Notes under the pieces: model-generated | Seen by the model: only the letters and a program-made list of their open reading frames with translations | Databases searched by the model: none | Told to the model about the DNA's origin: nothing | Position numbers and translations under genes: made by a program | Shown: piece after piece, positions 1,282-15,569 of the stretch | Layout of the letters: every line of letters begins with the position of its first letter | Position numbering within the stretch: the stretch's first letter is position 1 | Source of the DNA: an uncultured Propionibacteriaceae bacterium | GTDB lineage: Bacteria > Actinomycetota > Actinomycetes > Propionibacteriales > Propionibacteriaceae | DNA length: 32,373 bases | Reading direction: 5' to 3' | Assembly: GCA_902805915.1 (NCBI GenBank) | Contig: CADCUO010000236.1 | Span: 1-32,373 of the forward strand

Positions 1282-1410
1282 ATGACGGTCGATCGTGAAC
1301 GGGCCCTGGTGACCGGTGTCCACTCCGGCATCCCGCCGGGCCAGGCGATGGCGGCAGGCGCCGACGACGGGGCAGCCAGTGCCCGCGATGAGGAGGCGAC
1401 TCGAGCATGA
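1282..1410 (+). CDS. 42-residue ORF in the araB position; possible araB remnant
   Basis: Short ORF with an excellent ribosome binding site (GGAGGAG at 1271-1277, four bases before ATG) and an ATGA overlap with araD, so translation is likely. It is the first ORF of the operon, where araB (ribulokinase) often sits. Residues from about 9 (LVTGVHSGIPPGQA, then DDGAA) line up without gaps with the usual AraB N-terminus (VGVDFGT..GRA....DGAE), roughly 9 identities in 25 by eye, but the conserved DFGT phosphate-binding motif is lost. It may be a decayed araB with most of the gene deleted, or a leader ORF that couples ribosomes into araD. The similarity is short and from memory, so the remnant reading is tentative. 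Confidence 0.5.
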   Translation: MTVDRERALVTGVHSGIPPGQAMAAGADDGAASARDEEATRA

Positions 1411-2084
1411 CCATCTCAGCCGACATCGCCGAGGTGGTGGCCACGCTCCGCCGCGAGGTGAGGGACCTGCATGCCGAGCTGCCGCGGAACGAGCTGGTGG
1501 TGTGGACCGCTGGCAACGTGTCCGCCCGGGTGCCGGGCCATGACCTGTTGGTGATCAAACCCTCCGGCGTCAGCTATGACGAGCTGACCCCTGAGCTCAT
1601 GGTGGTCACCGACCTGGACGCCAAGCTGGTCGACGGTAACCGCGCCCCCTCCTCAGACACCGCCGCCCACGCGTACGTCTACAAGCACATGCCGGAGGTG
1701 AACGGGGTGGTGCACACACACTCCACCTACGCCACCGCATGGGCATCCCGGGGCGAGCCCATCCCCTGCGTGCTGACCATGATGGCGGACGAGTTCGGCG
1801 GCGAGATCCCGATCGGCCCGTTCGCGCTGATCGGTGACGACTCGATCGGTCAGGGCATCGTGCACACCTTGTCCGGGCACCGGTCCAGGGCGGTGCTGAT
1901 GCAGAACCACGGGCCGTTCACCATCGGCTCCAGCGCCAAGGCCGCCGTCAAGGCGGCGGTGCTGTGCGAAGAGGTCGCCCGGACCGTACACATCGCACGC
2001 CAACTCGGCGACCCGCTGCCCATCCCGCAGTCCGACATCGACTCGCTCTTCGACCGCTACCAGAACGCCTACGGGCAAAGATAA
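1407..2084 (+). CDS. araD: L-ribulose-5-phosphate 4-epimerase AraD
   Basis: Class II aldolase-fold, zinc-dependent epimerase converting L-ribulose 5-phosphate to D-xylulose 5-phosphate, the last step of bacterial arabinose use. At 225 residues it is close to E. coli AraD (231). Visible motifs are GNVSAR near the N-terminus, IKPSGVSY (phosphate binding), the zinc pair in VVHTHS, the third zinc histidine in QNHGPF, and a C-terminal tyrosine (RYQNAYGQR) matching the catalytic Tyr of the E. coli enzyme. The ATG has its own AGGAGG at 1391-1396, ten bases upstream, and overlaps the stop of the 42-codon ORF. araA follows after 10 bases, so the two are co-transcribed. The family also includes UlaF-type epimerases, but the araA neighbour settles the assignment. 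Confidence 0.93.
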
Positions 2085-2094
2085 GGACCATGAG

Positions 2095-3594
2095 ATGACA
2101 ACGACGCCGTACTGCTGGTTCCTGACCGGAAGCCAAGGCCTCTACGGCCCGGAGACTGTTGCCCAGGTGGTGGACCAGTCCCGCCAGATCGTCGACCAGC
2201 TCAACGACTCAGCCAACCTCGGTGTGGAGGTCGTGTGGAAGCCGGTGCTGACCGACTCGGAGTCGATCCACCGGCTGATCCTAGAGGCCAACAGCGATCC
2301 CGACTGCATCGGCGTCATCGCCTGGATGCACACCTTCTCTCCGGCCAAGATGTGGATCGCCGGACTGGACGCACTGCGTACGCCGCTGCTGCACCTGCAC
2401 ACTCAGTCCAATGTTGACCTGCCGTGGGGCGAGATCGACATGGACTTCATGAACTTGAACCAGGCGGCGCACGGCGACCGGGAGTTCGGCTATATCCAGA
2501 CTCGCCTCGGGGTGCCCCGCAAGACGGTGGCCGGACACGTCTCCGACCCGGGTGTCACCGCCCGGATCGGCGCCTGGCAGCGCGCCGCGGTGGGCGCCGC
2601 CGCCGTCCGGTCGCTGAAGCTGGCACGTTTTGGCGACAACATGCGCGACGTCGCGGTCACCGAGGGCGACAAGGTGGAAGCGCAGCTCCGCTTCGGAGTG
2701 TCGGTCAACACCTGGGGTGTGAACGACCTGGTGGCGGTGGTCAACCAGGTCAGCGACGCCGAGGTCGACACTTTGGTGGCCGAGTACGCCGAGCTGTACG
2801 ACATCGCACCGGAGCTCGCCGTCGGCGGCGACCGGCACGAGTCCCTGCGGTACGGCGCCCTGATCGAGGCCGGGCTGCGCAGCTTCCTCACCGACGGTGG
2901 CTTCGGCGCCTTCACCACCAACTTCCAAGACCTCGGCGGGCTGCGTCAGCTCCCCGGGCTCGCCGTCCAGCGGCTGATGGCCGACGGGTACGGCTTCGGC
3001 GGCGAGGGCGACTGGAAGACCTCGGTAATGCTGCACACCGTCAAGGCGATGGCCAAGGGCCAGCCAGGCGGGACCTCCTTCATGGAGGACTACACCTACC
3101 ACCTGGGGGAGGGCAGCCATAAGATTCTCGGCGCGCACATGCTGGAGGTCTGCCCGACGATCGCCAAGGCCCGCCCGACGGTGGAGATTCACCCGCTCGG
3201 TATCGGAGACAGGGAGGATCCGGTCCGGCTGGTGTTCGACGCGGTTCCCGGGCCGGCTGTGGTGCTGGGCATCTGCGACGTCGGCGACCGGTTCCGGCTG
3301 GTGCTGAACGAGATAGACGTGGTGGACCCCGACGAGCCGCTGCCCAACCTGCCGGTGGCCCGCGCGGTCTGGGAGCCTCGACCCTCCCTAGCCACCTCGG
3401 CGGAGTGCTGGCTGGCCGCCGGCGGACCGCACCACACCGTGCTGTCCTCGGCAGTCGGTACCGACGAGCTGTACGATTTCTCCGAGATGATCGGCACCGA
3501 GCTGCTGGTCATCGACGCCGACACCACGCCCCGCGGCTTCGCCAAGGAGATCCGCTGGAACCAGGTCTACCACCGCCTCGGCCTAGGCGGCTGA
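2095..3594 (+). CDS. araA: L-arabinose isomerase AraA
   Basis: Cytosolic Mn-dependent isomerase that turns L-arabinose into L-ribulose. The 499 residues match the usual 500. The start [11 protein letters not shown] is the typical AraA N-terminus, and the conserved block [14 protein letters not shown] holds a metal-binding Glu; a further conserved His lies in GGPHHTVLS near the C-terminus. The ATG at 2095 has AAGGA at 2083-2087 (seven bases away); an upstream ATG at 2090 opens only a two-codon frame. With araD it makes two of the three arabinose-pathway enzymes. The kinase AraB and any sugar importer are absent from the window, so the pathway must be completed elsewhere. Confidence 0.96.
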
Positions 3595-5197: not shown

Positions 5198-6742
5198 ATG
5201 AAACCCGTCACCTCACCCCTGCGCGCCCTCGCGGCCGCACTGGCGCTCGGGGCCATCGCTGTCAGCGGAGCGCATCTGTCCCACGTCCCTACCGCGTTCG
5301 CCGCGTCGCCCTCCGTCGGCTGGCTGCACACCTCCGGGTCGAAGGTCTTGACGTCGACCAACCAGGAACACACCATCAAAGCTGCGAACTGGTTCGGCCT
5401 GGAGACGTCGAACTGTGCACCGCATGGGCTGTGGAGCATCAGTCTTGACGCCGGCATGGCTCAGATCGCGTCGTTCGGCTTCAACACGATCCGGCTTCCG
5501 TTCTCCAACGAGTGCATCCGCGGCGCGGCCGTCAGCGGCTTAGACATCACCAGGAATCCATTGCTGGCCAACAAGACCCCCCTGCAGATCATGGACATCG
5601 TGATCCAGCGCGCTGAGGCGAACGGGCTCAGTGTCATCCTGGACCGGCACCGCCCGAGCTCCGCGGCTCAGTCTGAGCTGTGGTACACCCCGACCTATCC
5701 GGAGAGTGCGTGGATCAACGACTGGACCATGCTGGCAAAACGCTACGCTGCCAGCCCGACAGTGATCGGCGCCGACCTACACAACGAGCCACACGGCACC
5801 GCCTGCTGGGGCTGTACGGACGCCTCCCGCAACTGGCCGGCCGCAGCAACGCGAGCAGGGAACGCCGTCCTCGCCGCAAACCCCAAGCTGCTCATCATCA
5901 TTGAAGGTGTGGAGCGGCAGGCCAACGGCGAGTCCACCTGGTGGGGCGGCGGACTGTCTGACGTCCGCGCACACCCGGTCAGCCTGGCTGTCGGCAACCG
6001 GGTCGTGTACTCCCCCCACGAATATCCGGCATCGGTGTACCCGCAGAGCTGGTTCGCCGCTGCTAACTACCCAGCCAACCTGCCTGCGCAATGGGACAAG
6101 AGCTGGGGCTACCTGCACAAGCAGGGCATCGCGCCCATCCTGGTCGGAGAGTTCGGGACCAAGCTCGAAACGCGTTCAGACCAGCAGTGGCTCGAGAGCT
6201 TCGTTGCGTACCTGCAGAGCAACAAGATCGGCTTCGGCTACTGGTCGTTCAACCCCAACAGCGGCGACACAGGTGGTCTGGTCAAGGACGACTGGGTCAC
6301 TCCGCAAACCGCAAAGCTCACCGCACTGGCACCCATCTTGGTGACCGCACCGCCGACAACGCCGACGGCCACCCCCAGCCCAACCGCGACGGCCACGCCC
6401 AGCCCATCAACGCCACCCGCAACAACGATTCCGCCGGCAGGTGCGATCAGTGCGGCCTGGCAGCTGCAGTCGTCATGGCAGCAGGGCTATGTCGCCCAGG
6501 TGACCATCAAAGCCGGTTCGGCGACGCGTAGCGGCTGGACGCTGAAATGGTCTGATGCGAACGCGACCTCGGTCGTCAACGCCTGGGGCATGACATGCTC
6601 GGTCACCGGCCAGCAGGTCACCTGCCGTGGCGCGGACTGGGCCACGCACATCCCTGCCGGTTCCTCGGTCACCGTCGGTCTGCAGCTGAACGCCGCCGGG
6701 GGCGGCCCCTCCAACCCGTTGCTGGCCATCTCGTCACCGTAG
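5198..6742 (+). CDS. Secreted GH5 endoglucanase with C-terminal CBM2
   Basis: Exported beta-1,4-glucanase of 514 residues. Residues 1-35 form a signal peptide (basic start, hydrophobic core, AFA cleavage site before ASPS). The GH5 domain spans about 40-380: RLPFS with the conserved Arg99, DRHRP, the acid/base Glu197 in LHNEPHG, SPHEY (274-276), the nucleophile Glu318 in VGEFG, and Trp349 in GYWSFNP. A Pro/Thr linker covers about 383-415. A family 2 cellulose-binding module follows (about 416-512), with conserved Trp residues and a Cys pair. AGGAAG at 5185-5190 sets the ATG. It converges on the GH6 gene with only five bases between the stops. Its substrate is probably amorphous cellulose or a mixed beta-glucan, either from plants or the polymer made by the adjacent operon. 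Confidence 0.93.
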   Translation: MKPVTSPLRALAAALALGAIAVSGAHLSHVPTAFAASPSVGWLHTSGSKVLTSTNQEHTIKAANWFGLETSNCAPHGLWSISLDAGMAQIASFGFNTIRLPFSNECIRGAAVSGLDITRNPLLANKTPLQIMDIVIQRAEANGLSVILDRHRPSSAAQSELWYTPTYPESAWINDWTMLAKRYAASPTVIGADLHNEPHGTACWGCTDASRNWPAAATRAGNAVLAANPKLLIIIEGVERQANGESTWWGGGLSDVRAHPVSLAVGNRVVYSPHEYPASVYPQSWFAAANYPANLPAQWDKSWGYLHKQGIAPILVGEFGTKLETRSDQQWLESFVAYLQSNKIGFGYWSFNPNSGDTGGLVKDDWVTPQTAKLTALAPILVTAPPTTPTATPSPTATATPSPSTPPATTIPPAGAISAAWQLQSSWQQGYVAQVTIKAGSATRSGWTLKWSDANATSVVNAWGMTCSVTGQQVTCRGADWATHIPAGSSVTVGLQLNAAGGGPSNPLLAISSP

Positions 6743-6747
6743 CCGGC

Positions 6748-7923
6748 TTACCAGTTGGCGTTGCGGACCAGCTCGTCGGCGTAGTCGGGCCAAAACTGAC
6801 CAGCTGGCGGTTGTCCGGCCCGACAGGAGCCGTCGGACTCACCAGGTGGCTTGACCCACAGATAGCTGTCGACGAGTGACGTCGGCGCAGTCTGTGGGGC
6901 AGGCCCGAGCGCGCGGCCGGGTGGATTGCACCATTCCTCGGCCGGCGCCGGCCCGTTGCCGTTGCGACTGGTGTCCACGACGAAGGTCTTCCAGCCCAGC
7001 TGTGGAGAAATTTGGCGGCCATAGCCGATCTCGTCCTCGGTACGGCGGTAGTTGGACACATTGAGGGAGAAGCCGCGGGCCGCCGCCACTCCCGCCGCTG
7101 ACAATCGGCGGACCATCTCCGCTGCCGGTACCCAGCCGCTGTGTCCGGCGTCGAGGTAGACCGCAACTCCCTCGACCGGAGCCAGTTGTTGCGTCGCGGC
7201 TCGAAGCAGCTCGGTTCGCTGGGTCTGGCGGTCGGCGGGAAGCCGATCGAGCTGTCCCAGTGCATCCGGTTCGAGCACGACCGCAACGCCCGGTCCGGAG
7301 GAGGCGCCGCCGGCTCGCAGACCGGCGGTGAAGGCCTCGATCCAGGCGGTGTAGGCGGTGCCGGAGCTCGCGCCCCCCGTGGACGCGCCGCCGCAGTCCC
7401 GCAGCGGAATCCCGTACGCCACCAGGACTGCTACCTGTTGCTTCGACACAGCTCCCCGAACTGTGGCGGCTACCTGGGAGCTGAGAATCTTCGGCGTGAC
7501 CGCGGCGTCGGTGAACCAGACCGCCCTCGGCTGCTGCGCTAGTTTGCGGAGTCGGGCGGCCCGCTCCGGCTGACCTGCGGAATCAGCACTCTTCGCTGCT
7601 TGCTCGGCCTGCGGGTACGGCGGGGTCCACAGCGGGCCGCGAGCAAAGGGGGACGGAGGGGCTGCCGCGGAAGGGGGCGCTTGGGACTGCTGCGCGGCGG
7701 GCATCGTGGCCGCCTGCACCGCGCAGGCGGCTCGCAGCTCAGCGTCCGGGTCGCTTGACACCTGCCCGCTCGGGCTTGCCACTGCGGTCGCCAGCGCGAC
7801 GGCGAGCACCATCGCGATAGCGGCGCCGACGATCCAAGCGGTGCGGCGCCGGCCACCAAGAGGTCCGGAGAAGCGGCGGCGCAAGACGCCGGCCTGCTCC
7901 GAGGTCGGCCTGGTCGTCGTCAT
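6748..7923 (-). CDS. GH6 cellulase, membrane-anchored or secreted, no CBM
   Basis: Family 6 glycoside hydrolase of 391 residues. A basic N-terminus (RRRFSGPLGGRRR) precedes one hydrophobic segment (about 29-50), so it is a signal anchor or signal peptide, followed by an Ala/Pro/Gln-rich spacer to about 95. The catalytic-domain motifs match the family: RDCGG (Asp176), VLEPDAL (Asp220, the expected general acid), YLDAGHSGW (Asp258), NVSNYRRTEDE, and WVKPPGESDG (Asp364). These correspond to Asp79, Asp117, Asp156 and Asp265 of Thermobifida Cel6A. It is the last gene of the exopolysaccharide operon; its ATG overlaps the stop of the synthase gene (ATGA). By analogy with CslZ in Streptomyces and BcsZ in proteobacteria, it probably trims or releases the nascent glucan rather than digesting external cellulose. 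Confidence 0.9.
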   Translation of the reverse strand: MTTTRPTSEQAGVLRRRFSGPLGGRRRTAWIVGAAIAMVLAVALATAVASPSGQVSSDPDAELRAACAVQAATMPAAQQSQAPPSAAAPPSPFARGPLWTPPYPQAEQAAKSADSAGQPERAARLRKLAQQPRAVWFTDAAVTPKILSSQVAATVRGAVSKQQVAVLVAYGIPLRDCGGASTGGASSGTAYTAWIEAFTAGLRAGGASSGPGVAVVLEPDALGQLDRLPADRQTQRTELLRAATQQLAPVEGVAVYLDAGHSGWVPAAEMVRRLSAAGVAAARGFSLNVSNYRRTEDEIGYGRQISPQLGWKTFVVDTSRNGNGPAPAEEWCNPPGRALGPAPQTAPTSLVDSYLWVKPPGESDGSCRAGQPPAGQFWPDYADELVRNANW

Positions 7924-9536
7924 GGCGCCGGGACGAGTTCACGGAGAGCCTCGGAGCCGTCCTCAGCCGGCTGACCGTCGGGGCGCTGCCACCGGGCTTC
8001 ACCGGTGGGCAGACCGCGGCTGGCCAGCCGCTCCAGCACAGCCGGCCGCAGGGCCCAGGACACTCCGGTCCCGAGCACGCACACGTGCACCATGGCGAAA
8101 GCGACGTTGTTCAGCATGGCTGCGTCGCGGTTGTGCATCAGACCCCAGACCGACGAGCCGAGCAGCGTCGCACCCATCAGCAGGCCGGGCCAGACCGCGC
8201 CCGGCTGCCACTGTCCGGCGCCAGACTTCGGTGTCACCACAAACCTTCCGCGCCGCCGGGACAGCACCTGCAGGGTGGCTGCGATGTGGATCCAGAACGA
8301 CGCCGCGGCCAGACAGAAGGCGCTGAACGTGTACGCCCCGCCGCCGCCGACCGCGACCGTGACGATCGCCAGCAGGAAGTACGGGAGGAAGTGCAGCAGG
8401 AACGAGTCGGCGGTGGCCGCCGCGACGGGTTGCTCACCGGTGAGGATCCGGATGACGGGCAGTGACATGTAGATCAGAACTGTCCAGCCGGTGAGGAAAT
8501 AGAGGCTGGACAGCAGGTACTGCGCCTTGACCACCAACGGCAGGCTCGACCGGGCAGCCCGACCGACGGCCGACAGGCATCCGCGGGCCCAGCGCAGCTG
8601 CTGGCTGACGTATGACGCCATGTCCAGTGGACCCAGTCCCTGCACCAGCACCTCGGGTACGTACACGGTGCGCCAGCCCCGCTCCTGCAGCACCAGTGAC
8701 AGCTCGAAGTCCTCGGTGACCGACTCCTCGGGGAACCCACCGACCTGATCCAGCGCGGCACGCCGGAACACTACGTTGGTGCCGCAGCAGAACATGGCGC
8801 CGAGGGCGCCCTTGCCGCGCCCGATGCAGCCGAAGAACAACGCCTGCTGTGCCCAGGATGCCGCCGCGACAGGGTTCCGGTCGGCGTTGGCGTAGTACTG
8901 GGGGGTCTGGACGAAGGCGACTCGAGCGTCGGACAGGTGGCCGAGGGTGCGGCGCAGGAACTCCGGGTGCGGCACGTGGTCGCTATCGAGGACCAGCACG
9001 TACTCGCCGTCGGTCCGTGCCAGGGCGGCGTTGACGTTGCCCGCCTTCGCGCCGGTGTGCTGGTCGCGGGTCAGGTAGCGGGCGCCGTACCGGGCGGCCA
9101 GCTGCTCCATCTCGATGTCATCACCGTCGTCCAGCAGATAGACGGTGACGTCGGCTCCGCGCAGCTTCACCGCCGCGGCGACGACCGGCTCGACCACCTC
9201 CACCGGCTCGTTGTAGCGCGGTACGTATACGTCGACGGCGGCATAGTGCGGCAAGGTCGAGGCGGTCGTGGCAGCCGCGGTGAGGCGCCGGTCGTTGAGC
9301 AGCGTCCACCAGAATCCGACGGCCTGCACGATGTTGAACGTCTCAGCCAGCAGCAGGGCGGCGTAGAGCCAGGGGTTGCCCACCCGGTCTGGGTTGAGCA
9401 GCCAGCTGAAGTACCAGAACGAGGCGGCGATATTGGCCAGCAGGAGCAGCCGCAGCGTGACGGGCCGGGGCGTCTTGAGGACCGCCTCGGTGGCAGCCGG
9501 CGTCGGCCCGGTCGAGGTGAGCGGTTTCGGACTCAT
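7920..9536 (-). CDS. BcsA-like processive GT2 (cellulose synthase-like), no PilZ domain
   Basis: Inner-membrane processive glycosyltransferase of 538 residues. Two N-terminal membrane segments (about 28-47 and 56-80) precede the cytosolic GT2 domain: LLDDG (136-138), LVLDSD (DxD, 184-186), FCCGTN (about 249-254), TED (274-276) and QxxRW (312-316). At least five membrane segments follow. FVVTPK at 432-437 matches the FxVTxK gating loop of BcsA. The C-terminus ends without a PilZ c-di-GMP domain. I chose ATG 9536 rather than the ATG at 9560 because AAGGAG sits eight bases upstream and it gives an ATGA overlap with the preceding gene. The gating loop argues for a cellulose or cellulose-like product exported through its own channel; the exact linkage cannot be read. 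Confidence 0.88.
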   Translation of the reverse strand: MSPKPLTSTGPTPAATEAVLKTPRPVTLRLLLLANIAASFWYFSWLLNPDRVGNPWLYAALLLAETFNIVQAVGFWWTLLNDRRLTAAATTASTLPHYAAVDVYVPRYNEPVEVVEPVVAAAVKLRGADVTVYLLDDGDDIEMEQLAARYGARYLTRDQHTGAKAGNVNAALARTDGEYVLVLDSDHVPHPEFLRRTLGHLSDARVAFVQTPQYYANADRNPVAAASWAQQALFFGCIGRGKGALGAMFCCGTNVVFRRAALDQVGGFPEESVTEDFELSLVLQERGWRTVYVPEVLVQGLGPLDMASYVSQQLRWARGCLSAVGRAARSSLPLVVKAQYLLSSLYFLTGWTVLIYMSLPVIRILTGEQPVAAATADSFLLHFLPYFLLAIVTVAVGGGGAYTFSAFCLAAASFWIHIAATLQVLSRRRGRFVVTPKSGAGQWQPGAVWPGLLMGATLLGSSVWGLMHNRDAAMLNNVAFAMVHVCVLGTGVSWALRPAVLERLASRGLPTGEARWQRPDGQPAEDGSEALRELVPAP

Positions 9537-12406
9537 CGTGGCATCTCCTTGAACTCCCATACGGTCACGTTCGCCACCTTGTGAACGGCGGTCTCTCTTG
9601 CTCCAGCTGCCTCGAGGTCGAACAGCGTCTTGCCGACCTCGGCTGCGTACACGCGCTCGTTCAGAAAGCTGCCGAACACGAACACCGACCTTCCGTCGGG
9701 TGGGATCTTCGGCATTCCAGTCTTCTTCGCGCGTGGTTTCACTGAGCTGGCTCTGATGGCCGGAATCCCAGCCGAGTAGTAGTCCAGCTCGGATTTCAGA
9801 AAGCCGGGCGCGTAGAGCAGGACGTCGCCGGTCTCTGAGTTTGCCTTCACCCAGGCCACCGCACCGCGGAAGTCGTAGCTGCGGGGGTTGGACTGGTTCA
9901 CCTGCTGGTCCACCAGGCCACCGGCGAGCGAGGCCAGGACAACAACGGGAACCACCAGCCTGGTCAGCGGACCACGTCCCCAGCTGGCGGCCAGGCGAGA
10001 GAGCAGTAGCAGCAGCATCGGCACCGTTGAGGTGAAGTAACGCAGCTCGAAGAACTGGCGGCGCTCGAATCCGAACGCGAACAGCATCGCTGCAGGGACT
10101 ACGGCGACGAGGACGAGCACGAAGTCATACCCGGTCCGACTGCGCCCGAGCGCTCCAAAGCAGGCCAGCAAAGCCAACGGCCACAGGGCGCTGAGCTGCA
10201 CCATGGTGTCGTCGGCGTGGTAGCCCCAGATCGCCCAGATCGTGTTGGCGGCCACAGCATAGATGTCGGGGTCCGCGCCGGTCGCGTTCGACGCGGCGGC
10301 GCCAGTCTGCGCGGGCGCGCCGCTGATGCTCGTCGCCGCCAGCACGCTGTCCACCTGGGCTGCCAGGTAGGGCACCAGCGGCGCGAACGCAGCCAGCGAC
10401 GCGACAACCGAGATGCCCCACCCGCGGGCGAGCCGGACGTCGCGGCTGCGGACCGCCAGCACCGCGAACACTGCATGGTGCACCAGCAGCGGCAGCGCCG
10501 AGAACCAGTGCAGGTACAGCATCGCCACCGTGGTCGAGCAGAACACCACCCAGTTCAGCGCCGCAGGAGTGAGAGACCAGGCGTTTCTGGACCTCGGCCT
10601 GTCAGAGGTGCCACGCAGGATGCGGATCTGGGACCACGCAGCGAGTGTGGCCAGCAGCATCCAAACCGCGTACATCCGCGCCTCTTGGGCGTACCACACC
10701 GCGATCGGGGCGACGGCCGCGACGAGAGCGGCTATCCGAGCCGTCCGACGGTCCCACAGGTCCCGCGCCATCGCGTACATCAGCGGAATGAACACCAGCC
10801 CCGCTATCAGGCTGGGTATCCGGACCGCCCATTCCGCTGTGCTGCCGGTCACGTGCACCATCGACCACAGCACCGCCCCGAACAGCGGTGGGTGGACGTC
10901 GTTTTGACGCAGGGTTGCAATCATGTCCCAGAAGGGCAGCTGCGACTGCTGGATGCTGATCGCCTCATCCACCCAGATGCTGCGGGTGACGATGACCCGC
11001 AACGCGACACCGATGACCAGCGCCAAACCCAGCGGCCACAGCGGCAGCAGCCGTTCCTTCCAGGTCGGCTTGGCCACCGGCGCGCCAAGTGTGTCTGGGA
11101 CCGCGGGCGCAGCCGGATAGGCGCGACCCGGGACTCCGGCGCCGACGCTTCGCCCAGGCAGCCTGGGCCCGCCCACCAAGGCGCGTGCCGGTCGCGGAGC
11201 CGAGAGCGTCGACACCACAGCCACGGCTGAACCCAGCAGCAGCCCGAAGCACGCGGTCATGCTTGCGGCGACCACATCGCGGACCGAGGCCGCAGAGAGC
11301 AGCAGAGCCAGTTGGGTGGCCAATGCGAGGGCCACTAGCGAGCCAGCGAGCCGGCTCCGGCCGGTGACGCACAGCTGGGCCAGCAGTACCTTCGCTATAC
11401 CGAGCGACGCCATCGCCGCGACGTAGCCGATCACGTAGGTGTCCACCCCGCGGTAGCCTTCGCCGAGCGCTCTGGCGTACCAGTCGGCCGGAATCAACGC
11501 CACCACAGCGATCACCACCGCCGAGACTGCCACCGCCGCGTAGATCGCCACCAGCAGTGGGCCGTGTCCCCGGCGCTGCCGGCCCGCCGGCATCAGCACC
11601 ATCGGGATGGTGGCGGTGGCGAAGTAGGCGGCTCCACCGATGGTCGCAACAGCGGCGATCACACCCGCCTGCGGGCCGGACAGGATCCGGTTGGCGACGA
11701 TCACGTCCTGGGTGGCGATCACGGCAACCAACAGGAAGGTCAACGTCACCGCGGTCGACCTGAAGCTGGGTAGGCCGCCCGAGGCGGTGTCGGCGTCGAC
11801 ACGGTTGGGACCGCCCCGGCCAAAGGCCGTGGCGGTCAGTAGGGCGGCGTACCCCGCAGCAACGACGGCCAGTGCGGCCCCCGTCGCTCCGAACATCGGG
11901 ACCAGCGCAACTCCGAACAGTCCCCGGATCAGTGGCTCCACACAGAGGGTGGCAGCGGTCCCCCGGATGCGTTGGGTTCCGTACAGGTGCCCGCGGGCGA
12001 GCGGCAGCAGGGTAGCTGAGGGTCCAGCGGTGGCCAGGAGCAGAACTGCAAGGACCGGAAGGCCCATCATCGGAGCCAGTACGGGAGAGAGCGCCGCCAG
12101 CAGGCCTTCGACGACCAGCCCGATCACCAGTGCTGGCCGGAAGAGCCGCTGCGCCAAGGCAGGATCGAGGGCTAATGCAGCGGTGACGCTGTCGGCCACC
12201 ATGTGCAGCAGCAGGTAGGCCGCCAGGAACGCGACGAAGTCGCCGTACCCCTCGGGCAACAGCATTCGGGCCAGCACGGCACTGACCAGCAGGTTCCCGG
12301 CTCCGGCCAGGAGTTGCCCGGAGAGCGCCAAGCCCTGGCTGCGGCCAGCGCGGGTGAGATCGGCTCGGCTGGGAGCAGACGTGGGTACGGTCAAAGAGGT
12401 CGTCAT
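9533..12406 (-). CDS. Fusion protein: polysaccharide flippase (Wzx/MATE-like) plus GT-C (PMT/ArnT-like) glycosyltransferase
   Basis: A 957-residue polytopic protein with two distinct halves. Residues about 20-400 have some 12 hydrophobic segments and an early LARMLLPEGYGDF motif typical of polysaccharide-export flippases. A Pro/Gly/Ala-rich linker covers about 402-447. Residues about 450-870 form a second membrane domain with IWVDEAIS (Asp480-Glu481) in the first loop and NDVHPPLFG (His505), the signature of PMT/ArnT/GT39-type enzymes that use polyprenyl-phosphate sugars outside the membrane. A soluble C-terminal region (about 860-957) ends it. A GGAG eight bases before the ATG and ATGA overlaps at both ends tie it into the operon. 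The Alg5-like enzyme at the head of the operon could supply its donor. The acceptor is unknown. No frameshift is needed; the fusion is one open frame. Confidence 0.85.
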   Translation of the reverse strand: MTTSLTVPTSAPSRADLTRAGRSQGLALSGQLLAGAGNLLVSAVLARMLLPEGYGDFVAFLAAYLLLHMVADSVTAALALDPALAQRLFRPALVIGLVVEGLLAALSPVLAPMMGLPVLAVLLLATAGPSATLLPLARGHLYGTQRIRGTAATLCVEPLIRGLFGVALVPMFGATGAALAVVAAGYAALLTATAFGRGGPNRVDADTASGGLPSFRSTAVTLTFLLVAVIATQDVIVANRILSGPQAGVIAAVATIGGAAYFATATIPMVLMPAGRQRRGHGPLLVAIYAAVAVSAVVIAVVALIPADWYARALGEGYRGVDTYVIGYVAAMASLGIAKVLLAQLCVTGRSRLAGSLVALALATQLALLLSAASVRDVVAASMTACFGLLLGSAVAVVSTLSAPRPARALVGGPRLPGRSVGAGVPGRAYPAAPAVPDTLGAPVAKPTWKERLLPLWPLGLALVIGVALRVIVTRSIWVDEAISIQQSQLPFWDMIATLRQNDVHPPLFGAVLWSMVHVTGSTAEWAVRIPSLIAGLVFIPLMYAMARDLWDRRTARIAALVAAVAPIAVWYAQEARMYAVWMLLATLAAWSQIRILRGTSDRPRSRNAWSLTPAALNWVVFCSTTVAMLYLHWFSALPLLVHHAVFAVLAVRSRDVRLARGWGISVVASLAAFAPLVPYLAAQVDSVLAATSISGAPAQTGAAASNATGADPDIYAVAANTIWAIWGYHADDTMVQLSALWPLALLACFGALGRSRTGYDFVLVLVAVVPAAMLFAFGFERRQFFELRYFTSTVPMLLLLLSRLAASWGRGPLTRLVVPVVVLASLAGGLVDQQVNQSNPRSYDFRGAVAWVKANSETGDVLLYAPGFLKSELDYYSAGIPAIRASSVKPRAKKTGMPKIPPDGRSVFVFGSFLNERVYAAEVGKTLFDLEAAGARETAVHKVANVTVWEFKEMPR

Positions 12407-13539
12407 CGCATTACTCCGGTTGGGCGGATCCCCTGGAAGTGCTCGGTCCGAGGGATCCGCTGGTAGGTGGCAAGCTCGGCGCCCCGGGTCAGCAGCACCC
12501 GGAGCAGATCGGCGGTCTCGCTGGCCGCCACCGACTGTTGCCGAACTACGGCCAGCCCAGAGCCTCGAGCCAGTGCCGCGGCCACCACCGCCTCCGGACT
12601 GTCGGGTAGCAGCGGCAGGTGCAGCCGGGAAGCGGCGACCTCGGTGGCTGAGTCGTGCGGCCAGGCGATCAGCGGGACCCCGGCCGTACTTGCCGCCATC
12701 GTGGTGTGCGGATCACAGCTGATGCACAGCTGTGCTCGACTGAGCAGGTCCCGCTCTGCGGCCAGGGTCAGCGGCGGGATCGCACACCGTGCTCTGACTC
12801 CGAGCCGGTGCAGGGCAGCGGCAACATCGCTAGCGGCTTCCAGGTCGTCACCGGCGCCGAACCCGCAGCGCCATGCCTGCACGACCACGGAGCTGTCTGT
12901 CTGCAGCTGCCGGGACACCGCTGCACAGACTCCGGCGACCAGCTGCGCAGTCACCTCGGCGCCACCGTTCGCGGCGACATCGAGGAAGGTCAGCGGGCAC
13001 CACACCTCCGTGCCACCGCTGACCGGACGCGGCGGGTCGAGCGCTTGCAGCCACGCCAGGTCAGCACCGACGCGGAGCGGTCCTGGTGCCCCGGCGGCGG
13101 TGAGATGGAGGGCCGACTCGGCGTTGTCGAGGACAGTGAGGGAACTGCCTCTCACCAGTCGGTCGGCAAAGAAGGCGTCCCGGCGGGTGGTCAGCGCCTC
13201 GGCGGCGACTCCCACCAGCGCAAAGCGTCGGCCGGTGGTACTGACGGCCGTCATCAGCGCGTACAGCTCTGCCAGTCCGAACAGATGGGCGTCGCGGGCT
13301 CGGCTGGAAAGCGGCCTACCGCCGAGCACGACAACCGAGTCGACGAGCGGAAGCGCACGCAACACCGCGGTTGGAGTGGCCGCGATGGTCGACAGCCCGG
13401 TGGCTCGTTGGGTCCGTTCCGGCTCCGCTGCCGCTACCAGCACCTGGATCGGTCCCAGTGCAGCCGAAGTGGCGACCAGCGCTGCGTCGGCCGCGACGTC
13501 ACGCCAACGTGAGGGTTGCAGCAACAGCGTCGCTGTCAT
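12403..13539 (-). CDS. Polysaccharide pyruvyl transferase-like protein
   Basis: Soluble protein of 378 residues, tentatively in the CsaB/WcaK pyruvyltransferase family. Matching features are a glycine-rich strand-loop (VVVLGGRPLSSRA), a second strand FALVGVAAE, the RVGADLAWLQ block, and a late CDPHTTMAASTAGVPLIAW stretch in the place of the family's RLH-A-G-P motif. The usual Arg-Leu-His is altered to Asp-Pro-His, so the enzyme may be divergent or inactive. Members add pyruvyl ketals from phosphoenolpyruvate to exopolysaccharide sugars, giving negative charge. The start is set by AGGAGG six bases before ATG 13539. It overlaps the upstream GT4 gene by 41 bases and the fusion gene by ATGA. A GT-B-fold glycosyltransferase is the main alternative. 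Confidence 0.6.
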   Translation of the reverse strand: MTATLLLQPSRWRDVAADAALVATSAALGPIQVLVAAAEPERTQRATGLSTIAATPTAVLRALPLVDSVVVLGGRPLSSRARDAHLFGLAELYALMTAVSTTGRRFALVGVAAEALTTRRDAFFADRLVRGSSLTVLDNAESALHLTAAGAPGPLRVGADLAWLQALDPPRPVSGGTEVWCPLTFLDVAANGGAEVTAQLVAGVCAAVSRQLQTDSSVVVQAWRCGFGAGDDLEAASDVAAALHRLGVRARCAIPPLTLAAERDLLSRAQLCISCDPHTTMAASTAGVPLIAWPHDSATEVAASRLHLPLLPDSPEAVVAAALARGSGLAVVRQQSVAASETADLLRVLLTRGAELATYQRIPRTEHFQGIRPTGVMR

Positions 13540-14710
13540 GGGACACCTCCTGGTAGATCTCTAGATGACGTTGCGCGATGGTGGGCCAGGTTCGGTCAGC
13601 GGCCAGCTGCTCGACCGCGCGGCCGAGGCGGGAGACCGCGGCAGGGTCCGCGGCCAGGCGGCGCAGCCGGTCTGCCCAAGCCTTCGGGTCACCGGGTACG
13701 GCGACGCTGGGGTCGGCGCCGACTGTCGCAGCAAGCCGCTGTGACATCAGGACCGGGGTACGGTGAGCCAGCGCCAGCGCAAGCGGCCCACTCGAGGCAT
13801 GGGGCTCCGGATAGCACAGCATCAGCACGTCGGCGGCCTGGAACCAGGCCGACACCTCCGCGTCCGCGACGTACCCAGTGAAGAGTGCCGCGTTGCCCCA
13901 GCGCTGCTGCAGCCGGTTCGCATAGTCGTCCCCCCGCGCGGTCAGCCGCGGGTGCGGACCACCGGCGACCACCATCGATATGCCGGCGCCGGCGAGCCGG
14001 GCCGCCTCGAGGGCAGTCTCCAGACCCTTGTACGGAGCTAGGAAACCGAAGCAGAGGGCCAGCAGCCCGTCACCGGACACGCCCAAGCGGCGGCGGGTCT
14101 GGGTCCGCGGCTGGGACGGAAGCGGAGGTGTCTCGATGCCGTGGGGGACAACCTCGGCGCTGGGGATCAGGCTGCGGAACGCGGGTTCGTGCACCAGCAC
14201 CGCGTCAGCCAGGCCTGGGAGGATCTGTTGCACGGCGGCGATCGCGGCCCGCGCAGCGATGGCAGGCACCTCGACGCGGTGCATCGCGGTGTAGCCGCTG
14301 GTCACTGCGGCCGGGTTGACCACCTGATGCATGGTGACGACGGTGCGCTGGGAGAAGCCTGTGCGGTGTCGAGCGGCGAGCCCGGCGACGGTGGCTGGCA
14401 AACCAGTGGCGCCGGAGTAGAGGAACAGCTCGTGCTGGAGGTGCGCCACCGGCGCGCCGGTTGCGTGGGCAGCCGCCAGGGCGGTCCGAACGGCCCCGCT
14501 CCCGTACCGAAATGCGCGGCGGACCTGCACTGGGCCGTCCTGCCCGAGAGCCGGTTCGCCCGCCACCTCGGGCGCGACCACGGTGACCGCCACGCCGTGC
14601 CCGGCGAGCGCCTGAGCAAGATTGGCCGTATAGGAGGCAACCCCGGTGTCCCCGTCGTGGCGAGAACCCAGGCGCGGGTACGGGCTGATCAACGCCACAT
14701 CAGGAGACAC
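13499..14710 (-). CDS. Glycosyltransferase family 4
   Basis: GT-B-fold, probably retaining, cytosolic glycosyltransferase of 403 residues. The N-terminal domain starts VALISPYPRLGSRHDGDTGVASY with the glycine-rich acceptor loop. The C-terminal nucleotide-sugar domain has ALCFGFLAPYKGLETAL, VAGGPHP, GYVADAEVSAWFQAADVLMLCYPEP and SSGPLALALAH, where the family's second Glu of the EX7E motif is not obvious. The start is GTG 14710, with GGAG about eight bases upstream; the ATG nearby at 14700 is out of frame. It overlaps the Alg5-like gene by 11 bases and the pyruvyltransferase-like gene by 41. It probably adds a sugar to a lipid-linked precursor or a branch; donor and acceptor are unknown. Confidence 0.85.
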   Translation of the reverse strand: MSPDVALISPYPRLGSRHDGDTGVASYTANLAQALAGHGVAVTVVAPEVAGEPALGQDGPVQVRRAFRYGSGAVRTALAAAHATGAPVAHLQHELFLYSGATGLPATVAGLAARHRTGFSQRTVVTMHQVVNPAAVTSGYTAMHRVEVPAIAARAAIAAVQQILPGLADAVLVHEPAFRSLIPSAEVVPHGIETPPLPSQPRTQTRRRLGVSGDGLLALCFGFLAPYKGLETALEAARLAGAGISMVVAGGPHPRLTARGDDYANRLQQRWGNAALFTGYVADAEVSAWFQAADVLMLCYPEPHASSGPLALALAHRTPVLMSQRLAATVGADPSVAVPGDPKAWADRLRRLAADPAAVSRLGRAVEQLAADRTWPTIAQRHLEIYQEVSHDSDAVAATLTLA

Positions 14711-15569
14711 AGAACAGCTCCGCAGTGGAGCGGACCGGGCTCGGTTCGATGGCCGCGGCCCCGGACGAGGGGCTGTCGTGGGAGACCAGGGTCAGGGTGG
14801 GCTGTCGCTTGACCGGCACGGGCTCGATGACTGCCGGCACAATGGCCAGGGCCGGCATCCGTACCGGCATCACCTGGTGGTGCAACCACAGCCGGGCCAG
14901 CGACGCCGCCATCCTCCAGGTGTCGCAGGCAGCCCGGACGCGGGAGCCGTCCTGGTCGATCCACACCGTGGGCACTTCTGCCACCCGGAGGCCAAGAGCG
15001 CGGGCCGTGAGCAGCAGGTCCACATCGAAGATGAAGTCGCGGGAGGAGACCAGCGGCATCACTCGGCGCGCCGCCTGCCGGGTGATCACCTTTGCCCCGC
15101 ACTGGGTGTCCAAGAAGGGCAGCGGGAATACCAGCCGTACTGCGCGAGCGAACCCGGCACTTGCGATCCGACGCCCGATCGGACGGGGTTTCGGCAGCAC
15201 CGAGGTGGGATGCCACCGTGACGCGATGGCGATGTCGGCGCCGGTGTCCGCGATGGTGTCGGTGAGTGCCTTGATCTCAGCTGGCGGCGTCGCGCAGTCG
15301 GCGTCGACGAAGACGATCAGGTCCGCCTCGCTGGCCCGGAACGCCTCGGCCAGCACTCCGCCCTTACCCAGACGCGGGTAGGCCACTGCCCGGACCCGGG
15401 GGTCCTCGGCTGCATGGGCGGCGACGATTTCTGCCGTTGCGTCGGTGCAGTCGTCGAGCGCGACGGTCAGTCGCACGTCCGGTGCCAGCAGGTCACTTCG
15501 GTACGCAGCCAGTGTTCGACCGATGCGGTGTTGCTCATTATGGGCAGGAATGACTATCTCGAGTGACAT
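14700..15569 (-). CDS. GT2 polyprenyl-phosphate glycosyltransferase, Alg5/DPG-synthase-like
   Basis: Non-processive GT2 enzyme of 289 residues and first gene of the exopolysaccharide operon. Motifs are IVIPAHNEQHRIGRTL, a metal-binding VFVDADCATPP, ASRWH, and DTQCGAKVI, the last characteristic of dolichyl/polyprenyl-phosphate glucose (or mannose) synthases. No membrane segment is evident, so it would act at the inner face of the membrane. The last 55 residues are low-complexity and look non-conserved. GGAGGAG four bases before ATG 15569 makes the start clear. Inference: it makes a polyprenyl-phosphate hexose that the GT-C half of the fusion protein uses. Glucose is likely but cannot be proved from sequence. 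Confidence 0.82.
   Translation of the reverse strand: MSLEIVIPAHNEQHRIGRTLAAYRSDLLAPDVRLTVALDDCTDATAEIVAAHAAEDPRVRAVAYPRLGKGGVLAEAFRASEADLIVFVDADCATPPAEIKALTDTIADTGADIAIASRWHPTSVLPKPRPIGRRIASAGFARAVRLVFPLPFLDTQCGAKVITRQAARRVMPLVSSRDFIFDVDLLLTARALGLRVAEVPTVWIDQDGSRVRAACDTWRMAASLARLWLHHQVMPVRMPALAIVPAVIEPVPVKRQPTLTLVSHDSPSSGAAAIEPSPVRSTAELFCVS

What the first reader, a model, noticed from the sequence alone, without database searches (positions are those of the whole stretch)
6748..15569. Six-gene, fully overlapping operon for a cellulose-like, possibly decorated exopolysaccharide
Alg5-like GT2, GT4, pyruvyltransferase-like protein, flippase/GT-C fusion, BcsA-like synthase and GH6 hydrolase are encoded in one transcript, each overlapping the next (11, 41, 4, 4 and 4 bases). 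The set joins a lipid-linked-sugar route (Alg5-like plus GT-C) with a synthase-dependent route (BcsA-like plus GH6), two logics that are usually separate. I know of no described system with this gene set.
Basis: partly seen in the sequence, partly recalled or inferred. Interest (0 to 1): 0.8.

Follow-up and report, generated by a model that had tools for sequence, protein, structure and literature searches.

The report
Putative grafted-cellulose operon in Actinomycetota
A conserved set of overlapping genes in soil actinobacteria seems to couple a cellulose-type synthase to a lipid-carried sugar route, which may hang side groups on the chain as it leaves the cell; no experiment has been done.

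Summary
The six overlapping genes are real and not a chance neighbourhood. A pattern-based scan kept 38 loci with the same synthase type, 37 titled as Actinomycetota. Its GT-C partner lies just upstream in 36 of 36 loci with enough sequence; all five core genes are present in 17 of 24. The GH6 slot holds GH8, the BcsZ family, in 23 of 34 loci, GH6 in 4. The synthase keeps cellulose-synthase motifs but forms its own clade apart from CslA. The fourth protein looks like a Wzx flippase fused to an ArnT/PMT-like GT-C. I read the operon as a cellulose-type synthase with a lipid-linked grafting module; substrates and acceptor are inferred. It is probably not a pyruvyltransferase here, though one close pair shows purifying selection. 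Novelty: new variant of a known kind.

The parts
14700..15569 (-). GT2 of the polyprenyl-phosphate-sugar synthase type (Alg5/DPMS-like), first gene
   Evidence: Pfam PF00535; only PDB hit at E<=1e-5 is dolichol monophosphate mannose synthase 5mlz, E 2e-7. In the 35-row table both DxD aspartates are in 35 rows, and the D, Q and K of the D-T-Q-C-G-x-K motif in 20; I take the other 15 rows to be synthase sequences matched by the GT2 profile, not checked row by row. 'Alg5-like' motif is recalled.
13499..14710 (-). GT4 glycosyltransferase, GTG start
   Evidence: Pfam GT4 domains; the PYKG motif is in 20 of 20 rows, but no EX7E pair is seen at the usual place in those rows (motif recalled).
12403..13539 (-). 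CsaB-like protein with dismantled PEP site
   Evidence: TIGR03609 E 2.5e-6; GT-B-like model, mean pLDDT 90.9; by alignment R148->D, R306->D, K328->A, H308 kept (positions from PMC10435577).
9533..12406 (-). Fusion: Wzx/MOP-like flippase (about residues 14-402) plus GT-C glycosyltransferase (about 449-957)
   Evidence: AlphaFold2 model, mean pLDDT 85.4, pTM 0.59. Foldseek lists WzxE 9g9p (TMt 0.71, top hit), MATE proteins and MurJ, and also ALG12, OST/PglB and ArnT. The listing gives no ranges; that the flippase is the N-terminal half is inferred from PMT_2 at 505-634. D480, E481, D503, P506, P507 in 37 of 37 rows.
7920..9536 (-). BcsA-like processive beta-glycan synthase, no PilZ domain (start 9536 or 9560)
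   Evidence: CelA E 7e-80, solved BcsA; DxD, TED and QxxRW in 39 of 39 rows, FxVTxK gating loop in 38 of 39, the other row ending at a contig end.
6748..7923 (-). GH6 cellulase with a hydrophobic N-terminal stretch, probably a membrane anchor
   Evidence: PF01341 E 5e-65; nearest solved chain 1uoz 'putative cellulase', E 2.7e-67; three catalytic-site aspartates in 5 of 5 rows (roles recalled). Anchor read by eye from the sequence; no topology program was run.
5198..6742 (+). Neighbour: GH5 cellulase with CBM2, convergent, stop 5 bases from the GH6 stop
   Evidence: PF00150 and PF00553. GH5 genes were also confirmed in 6 of the 38 relative loci: L061, L062, L063, L069, L071, L080.

Best explanation
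The operon makes a cellulose-type beta-glucan with side groups grafted on outside the membrane. Shown by sequence or fold: the synthase is a BcsA-type enzyme with its catalytic and gating motifs; a cellulase (GH6 here, GH8 in most relatives) goes with it; the GT2 resembles polyprenyl-phosphate sugar synthases; the fourth protein joins a Wzx-type flippase to a GT-C enzyme of the class that uses polyprenyl-linked sugars. Inferred: gene order follows the pathway. GT2 loads a sugar on polyprenyl phosphate; GT4 (and in some relatives CsaB, by pyruvylation) extends or modifies it in the cytoplasm; the Wzx half flips it; the GT-C half transfers it to the glucan leaving the synthase; the cellulase trims or releases chains. 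In this window the CsaB-like step is probably not pyruvylation. The GT-C sits in the 'second partner' place that BcsB, CcsB or GlxA occupy in known systems.
For: Conserved order: GT-C just upstream in 36 of 36 loci with at least 1.5 kb; all five core genes in 17 of 24 loci with at least 6.3 kb. Downstream, of 34 loci with at least 600 bases: GH8 in 23, GH6 in 4; exchange of cellulase families points to a beta-1,4-glucan. Active-site conservation. Folds. Own synthase clade, SH-aLRT 99. BcsB in 0 of 5 genomes and over the cut-off in 0 of 38. GlxA in none of the 80 fetched loci L053-L132 nor in the window; the query found all 8 GlxA-bearing loci, one of them its own source. Reduced loci keep only GT-C, synthase and GH8 of the operon's families on the stretch held (L061, L063).
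Against: No product, linkage or acceptor is known; a GT-C acceptor cannot be read from sequence, so it could glycosylate a lipid, a protein or a wall polymer. 7 of 24 well-covered loci lack at least one core gene. The operon is patchy: among 20 genomes of the genus searched, the window's included, only the window and G013 hold a close synthase (next best 39%). The GT4 lacks the usual EX7E pair and the CsaB-like protein its PEP site in this lineage, so two 'steps' have no assured chemistry. BcsB absence does not discriminate: 12 of 12 other genomes with distant BcsA-like genes also lacked it by the same model. Cellulase family does not fix the substrate: Streptomyces CslZ also acts on peptidoglycan and chitin (PMC11022532 passage), and GH8 includes other glucanases and chitosanases (recalled). 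The fusion model has pTM 0.59, so the placing of its halves is unsure. Pvg1p is not among the 50 hits listed for the CsaB-like model.
Confidence: 0.5

Rival explanations
1. Plain cellulose synthase with a mainly structural partner: the GT-C/flippase protein serves as a membrane scaffold in the BcsB/GlxA place and the other genes make a separate wall glycan.
For: GT-C is the one neighbour never missing (36 of 36), also where GT2, GT4 and CsaB-like are not on the stretch held (L061, L063).
Against: GT-C loop residues D480/E481 and D503 are in 37 of 37 rows, which a mere scaffold would not need.
Confidence: 0.2
2. A lipid-linked oligosaccharide pathway (Wzx-like) is primary, and the BcsA-like enzyme adds a short beta-glucan to it or to a wall polymer rather than making free cellulose.
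For: Wzx-like part; GT2 of polyprenyl type; no PilZ domain on the synthase.
Against: Full processive-synthase motif set including the FxVTxK gate; GH8 or GH6 next to it in 27 of 34 loci; none of the six families is a Wzy polymerase.
Confidence: 0.15
3. Pyruvylated cellulose-like polymer, with an active CsaB-type enzyme.
For: All four PEP-contact residues are kept in 7 of 21 aligned copies (L058, L070, L073, L075, L077, L082, L085); P. alvei CsaB acts on a lipid-linked disaccharide (PMC10435577 passages).
Against: For the window: R148, R306 and K328 equivalents are D, D and A; R148 is D in 7 of 7 Propionibacteriales rows, and R148K or R148Q killed P. alvei CsaB. In four of those rows position 328 is R, and K328R stayed active in P. 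alvei, so that change alone proves nothing.
Confidence: 0.08

Closest known systems
Streptomyces CslA-GlxA-CslZ
   Same: Actinobacterial GT2 cellulose synthase with a non-BcsB partner and a cellulase gene in the cluster (PMC11022532 passages). Of 8 GlxA loci fetched, 6 have a synthase and all 6 of those have a GH6 near it.
   Different: Separate synthase clade; no GlxA; partner gene is a flippase/GT-C fusion; lipid-linked-sugar genes present.
Gram-negative bcsA-bcsB-bcsZ
   Same: Synthase motifs; GH8 in the BcsZ place in 23 of 34 relative loci.
   Different: No BcsB over the cut-off, no PilZ on the synthase, GT-C/flippase and CsaB-like genes added.
Clostridial ccsZABHI
   Same: Gram-positive cellulose locus with another cellulase family (GH5) and decoration genes (PMC7710045 passages).
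   Different: CcsB partner and O-acetylation there; flippase/GT-C and GT2/GT4/CsaB-like here.
Three-component extracytoplasmic glycosylation (GT-A enzyme, GtrA flippase, GT-C)
   Same: Polyprenyl-phosphate sugar synthase, flippase and GT-C transferase (outlined in PMC13390465 passages).
   Different: Flippase is Wzx/MOP-like, not GtrA, and is fused to the GT-C; acceptor would be a synthase-made glucan.
CsaB/Pvg1p ketal-pyruvyltransferases
   Same: Sequence kinship of the family (PF04230 in L066); intact PEP residues in 7 of 21 rows.
   Different: PEP site lost in the window's lineage.

Membership tests
BcsA-type cellulose synthase (GT2) | D, DxD, TED, QxxRW and FxVTxK motifs | tested here: met
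   DxD, TED and QxxRW in 39 of 39 rows; first D and FxVTxK in 38 of 39 each, a gap in the other row.
BcsA-type cellulose synthase (GT2) | C-terminal PilZ domain | tested here: not met
   Protein ends about 100 residues after the gating loop; no PilZ in the Pfam scan.
bcs system | BcsB partner | tested here: not met
   PF03170 in 0 of 5 genomes and over cut-off in 0 of 38, one weak hit below it; controls E. coli and B. subtilis positive. Window genome 84% complete.
bcs system | Cognate cellulase next to the synthase (BcsZ, GH8) | tested here: met
   Met in kind: GH6 here; GH8 in 23 and GH6 in 4 of 34 relative loci.
CslA-GlxA system | GlxA radical copper oxidase | tested here: not met
   No PF09118 in G000; no GlxA in the window or loci L053-L132. 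7 of 38 genomes hold some PF09118 domain, outside the fetched stretches as far as one search shows.
CslA-GlxA system | Synthase inside the CslA clade | tested here: not met
   6 CslA-type rows and 39 window-type rows separate, 100 and 99 SH-aLRT (quick tree, long-branch warning).
Three-component glycosylation | GT-C with acidic catalytic residues in the first loop | tested here: met
   D480/E481 in 37 of 37 rows, fold.
Three-component glycosylation | GtrA-type flippase | tested here: not met
   Flippase part is WzxE/MurJ-like.
CsaB pyruvyltransferase | PEP-contact residues R148, R306, H308, K328 | tested here: not met
   Window keeps H308 only.
Cellulose producer | beta-1,4-glucan product | not testable with these tools
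   Needs linkage analysis.

The most novel reading that the evidence does not exclude
A further class of bacterial cellulose machine in which a Wzx-flippase/GT-C fusion replaces BcsB or GlxA as the synthase's partner and grafts lipid-carried sugars onto the chain as it emerges. The anionic or acyl end-group may be swapped by lineage: pyruvate where CsaB keeps its PEP site, and sulfate or an acyl group where that site is lost and a sulfotransferase or HxxxDG protein is added at the operon's end.
Probability: 0.3. Interest if true: 0.82.

Novelty: new variant of a known kind. Interest (0 to 1): 0.62.

Why it matters
If true, synthase-made cellulose can be branched in one operon by lipid-linked sugars, joining two routes that are usually treated as separate. 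It would give Gram-positive cellulose another type of partner protein and supply enzymes for decorated cellulose. It would also show a pyruvyltransferase scaffold kept by selection after loss of its donor site.

Tried and rejected
Chance neighbourhood: rejected by conserved order. Member of CslA-GlxA: rejected. Known RNA element: no Rfam match in the window at gathering threshold. Absence of BcsB as a distinctive mark: weakened, since 12 of 12 other BcsA-like genomes also gave none. Pvg1p as fold match for the CsaB-like model: not among the 50 hits listed. PDB sequence searches: P0003 none at E<=1, its family profile one hit at E 0.36, the fusion's profile none at E<=0.1. A first gene caller based on GC3 chose antisense ORFs in very GC-rich loci, and the flank clustering was likewise full of antisense shadows; for the core genes I relied on profile searches of six-frame translations. 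Rows dropped: the L055/L057 GT2 row (L055's contig starts after GT2, so a paralogue was matched); 15 of the 35 GT2 rows are taken as mismatches; the split or partial CsaB-like copies of L066, L068 and L088 were not put in the 21-row table. Literature searches that listed nothing on this gene set: (open-access library only).
Full report
OBSERVATION. The window is contig C236 of an 84% complete draft genome. Its same-genus relative G013 lies on a contig of the same length as a Microlunatus endophyticus record (358,367 bases), so the genus is probably Microlunatus.

CONSERVATION. Among 57 related genomes only G013 has a close synthase (69%); the next best is 39%. G013 holds all six genes in order, with a second GH6. 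The CsaB-like protein is found in 5 of 391 genomes of the order, the window's included (at most 5 candidates per genome were scored in the rows listed, so a lower bound). Of the other four, two hold all six genes, one lacks GH6, and one begins within the operon, so that GT2 is not seen. A scan of the 84,980-species collection with a five-sequence synthase alignment gave 167 relatives, of which the best 80 loci were kept. 38 of these (L053-L090, 52-72% identity) are of the window's kind: 37 records are titled as Actinomycetota or members of it and one as Acidobacteria. Titles include Nocardioides, Aeromicrobium, Microlunatus, Frankia, Solirubrobacterales, Acidimicrobiales and Nitriliruptorales. 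The scan rests on two peptide patterns, so it misses an unknown number. In 296 genomes drawn from the phylum, 5 matched the fourth protein at E <= 1e-20: the window itself, one strong match (9e-97) and three weak ones (at most 2 candidates per genome scored in the rows listed). The system is taxonomically broad but rare.

ANATOMY ACROSS LOCI. Of 38 loci, 36 hold at least 1.5 kb upstream of the synthase, and 36 of 36 have the GT-C there. Of 24 loci with at least 6.3 kb upstream, GT2 is in 21 (weak in L079 and L087), the flippase part in 20 (doubtful in L081 and L087), the CsaB-like gene in 19, GT4 in 17, and all five in 17. The exceptions are L061, L062, L063, L066, L079, L081 and L087. L061 and L063 (Solirubrobacteraceae type) have only GT-C, synthase and GH8 of the operon's families on the stretch held. 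In L062 the GT4 lies downstream. Of 34 loci with at least 600 bases downstream, 23 have GH8 next, 4 have GH6 (L055, L057, L058, L090) and 7 neither (L053, L054, L056, L062, L069, L080, L086); L080 has a GH8 upstream. Pfam confirms GH8 in 8 of these loci; ten proteins were scanned, the two from L067 and L073 being other genes. GH8 is the family of BcsZ (established knowledge); exchange of GH8 and GH6 in this place, and GH5 in clostridia, is the best evidence that the polymer is a beta-1,4-glucan, though these families can act on other substrates. GH5 cellulases were also confirmed in 6 of the 38 fetched loci and, with a CBM2, beside the operon in the window.

SYNTHASE. It matches CelA (E 7e-80, below that model's cut-off) and solved BcsA (for the profile). 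DxD, TED and QxxRW are in 39 of 39 rows and the FxVTxK gate in 38 of 39, the remaining row (L088) being cut by a contig end. There is no PilZ domain. In a quick maximum-likelihood tree of 97 rows the 39 window-type synthases are one side of a branch (99), apart from 6 synthases beside GlxA (100), 10 rows from related genomes and 42 distant BcsA-like rows; the tool warned of long branches. BcsB (PF03170) was found in 0 of 5 genomes and over the cut-off in 0 of 38, with one weak hit below it. The same model was also negative in 12 of 12 genomes with distant BcsA-like genes, so this is not distinctive. GlxA is not in the window genome, nor in the window or any of the loci L053-L132, while the query found all 8 GlxA-bearing loci, one being its own source. 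Some PF09118 domain exists in 7 of the 38 genomes.

LIPID-LINKED MODULE. The GT2's only PDB hit at E <= 1e-5 is dolichol monophosphate mannose synthase. The fourth protein was modelled at mean pLDDT 85.4 and pTM 0.59. Its best structural match is the lipid III flippase WzxE (TM-score by target 0.71); MATE proteins and MurJ follow, and the GT-C proteins ALG12, PglB/OST and ArnT are in the same list. The list gives no ranges; PMT_2 at 505-634 places the GT-C in the C-terminal half, so the flippase is the N-terminal half by inference. D480, E481 and D503 are in 37 of 37 rows. A literature search for such a fusion listed no paper.

CsaB-LIKE PROTEIN. Mutants of P. alvei CsaB show that R148, H308 and K328 matter for PEP, with R306 also placed at PEP by docking; R148K, R148Q, H308A and H308R were inactive, K328R, H308K and H308S active (PMC10435577, abstract and passages). 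For Pvg1p, R217 and R337 are proposed PEP contacts (PMC4872226 passages). In a 21-row alignment (window plus 20 of the 38 loci) all four are kept in 7 rows. In the 7 Propionibacteriales rows R148 is D in 7, R306 is D in 6 and Q in 1, K328 is absent in 7 (A in 2, R in 4, I in 1), and H308 stays in 3, the window included. The window has D, D, H and A. In the Aeromicrobium pair L055/L057, which has none of the four residues, dN/dS is 0.145 for this gene, against 0.148 for the fusion, 0.177 for GH6 and 0.083 for the synthase. Other pairs gave 0.33-0.36; the window/L090 pair gave 0.58 at dS 0.83. So the protein is kept, but hardly as a PEP enzyme. The model is a confident GT-B-like fold, with UDP-GlcNAc 2-epimerases and GT-B transferases as nearest folds at modest TM-scores (0.42-0.59 by query).

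TAIL GENES. Six Propionibacteriales loci other than the window (L053-L057, L090) carry a further protein after the synthase or GH6, with an HxxxDG motif in 5 of 6. Five of the six were scanned and had no Pfam match; four were scanned and had no NCBIfam match. It resembles CoA-dependent acyltransferases of the condensation/PapA kind by this motif only (recalled). It was not found in the window's draft genome. Five loci (L064, L067, L069, L072, L076) have a sulfotransferase-like tail by profile, Pfam-confirmed in L067, L072 and L076. Among the 21 CsaB-like rows, one of these tails is seen in 0 of 7 with an intact PEP site and in 9 of 14 without. The nine come from two clades only, so this is a hint and not a test.

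MECHANISM. Best reading: GT2 loads a sugar on polyprenyl phosphate, GT4 extends it, CsaB pyruvylates it in some lineages, the Wzx half flips it, the GT-C half grafts it onto the glucan from the synthase, and the cellulase trims. Steps shown: fold, family and residue identity. Steps inferred: substrate, acceptor and order. The gene order matches the order of these steps. The alternative that the GT-C is mainly the synthase's partner, in the place of BcsB or GlxA, is supported by its constancy and is not excluded.

LITERATURE. PMC11022532 (passages) describes core synthase plus an unrelated partner (BcsB, CcsB, GlxA) plus a cellulase as the shared plan of bacterial cellulose systems. PMC7710045 (passages) gives a Gram-positive locus with GH5 and O-acetylation genes. 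PMC7112194 (12 of 44 passages) surveyed synthase operons in 1758 bacteria; the passages I saw do not mention this arrangement. PMC13390465 (abstract and passages) describes Wzx/Wzy and GtrA clusters in Actinoplanes; 'cellulose' and 'pyruvyl' do not occur in its main text. None of the searches listed a paper that points to this gene set.

Noticed in passing
window 5198-6742 (+): GH5 cellulase with a CBM2 domain, convergent with the operon and ending 5 bases from the GH6 stop; it stands where the six other Propionibacteriales loci have the HxxxDG-type protein downstream.
   Followed up: partly
G000 contig C93 (L044, 7674-8282): Second GH6 gene, cut by the contig end, 54% identical to the operon's GH6 over 209 residues; M. 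endophyticus has two GH6 genes in tandem (L033, L090).
   Followed up: partly
L053 11569-12930, L054 11572-12897, L055 7677-9044, L056 11572-12849, L057 12426-13796, L090 13908-15236: Conserved protein at the operon end, HxxxDG motif in 5 of 6 (acyltransferase-like), no Pfam match in the five scanned, not found in the window's draft genome.
   Followed up: yes
L064, L067, L069, L072, L076, downstream of the synthase: Sulfotransferase-like gene at the operon end, which suggests a sulfated product.
   Followed up: partly
window 13499-14710 and 19 homologues: The GT4 keeps the PYKG motif but no EX7E pair is seen at the usual place in 20 of 20 rows; its donor chemistry may be unusual.
   Followed up: partly
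L061, L063: Reduced version in Solirubrobacteraceae-type genomes: only GT-C, synthase and GH8 of the operon's families on the stretch held, with a GH5 cellulase further off and a GH15 gene upstream in L063.
   Followed up: partly
L034 (G010, same genus), minus strand near 8270-9616: BcsA-like synthase in a 965-residue open frame with a long extra C-terminal part; very long branch in the tree.
   Followed up: no
window 1407-3591 (+): Class II aldolase-family gene followed by L-arabinose isomerase.
   Followed up: no
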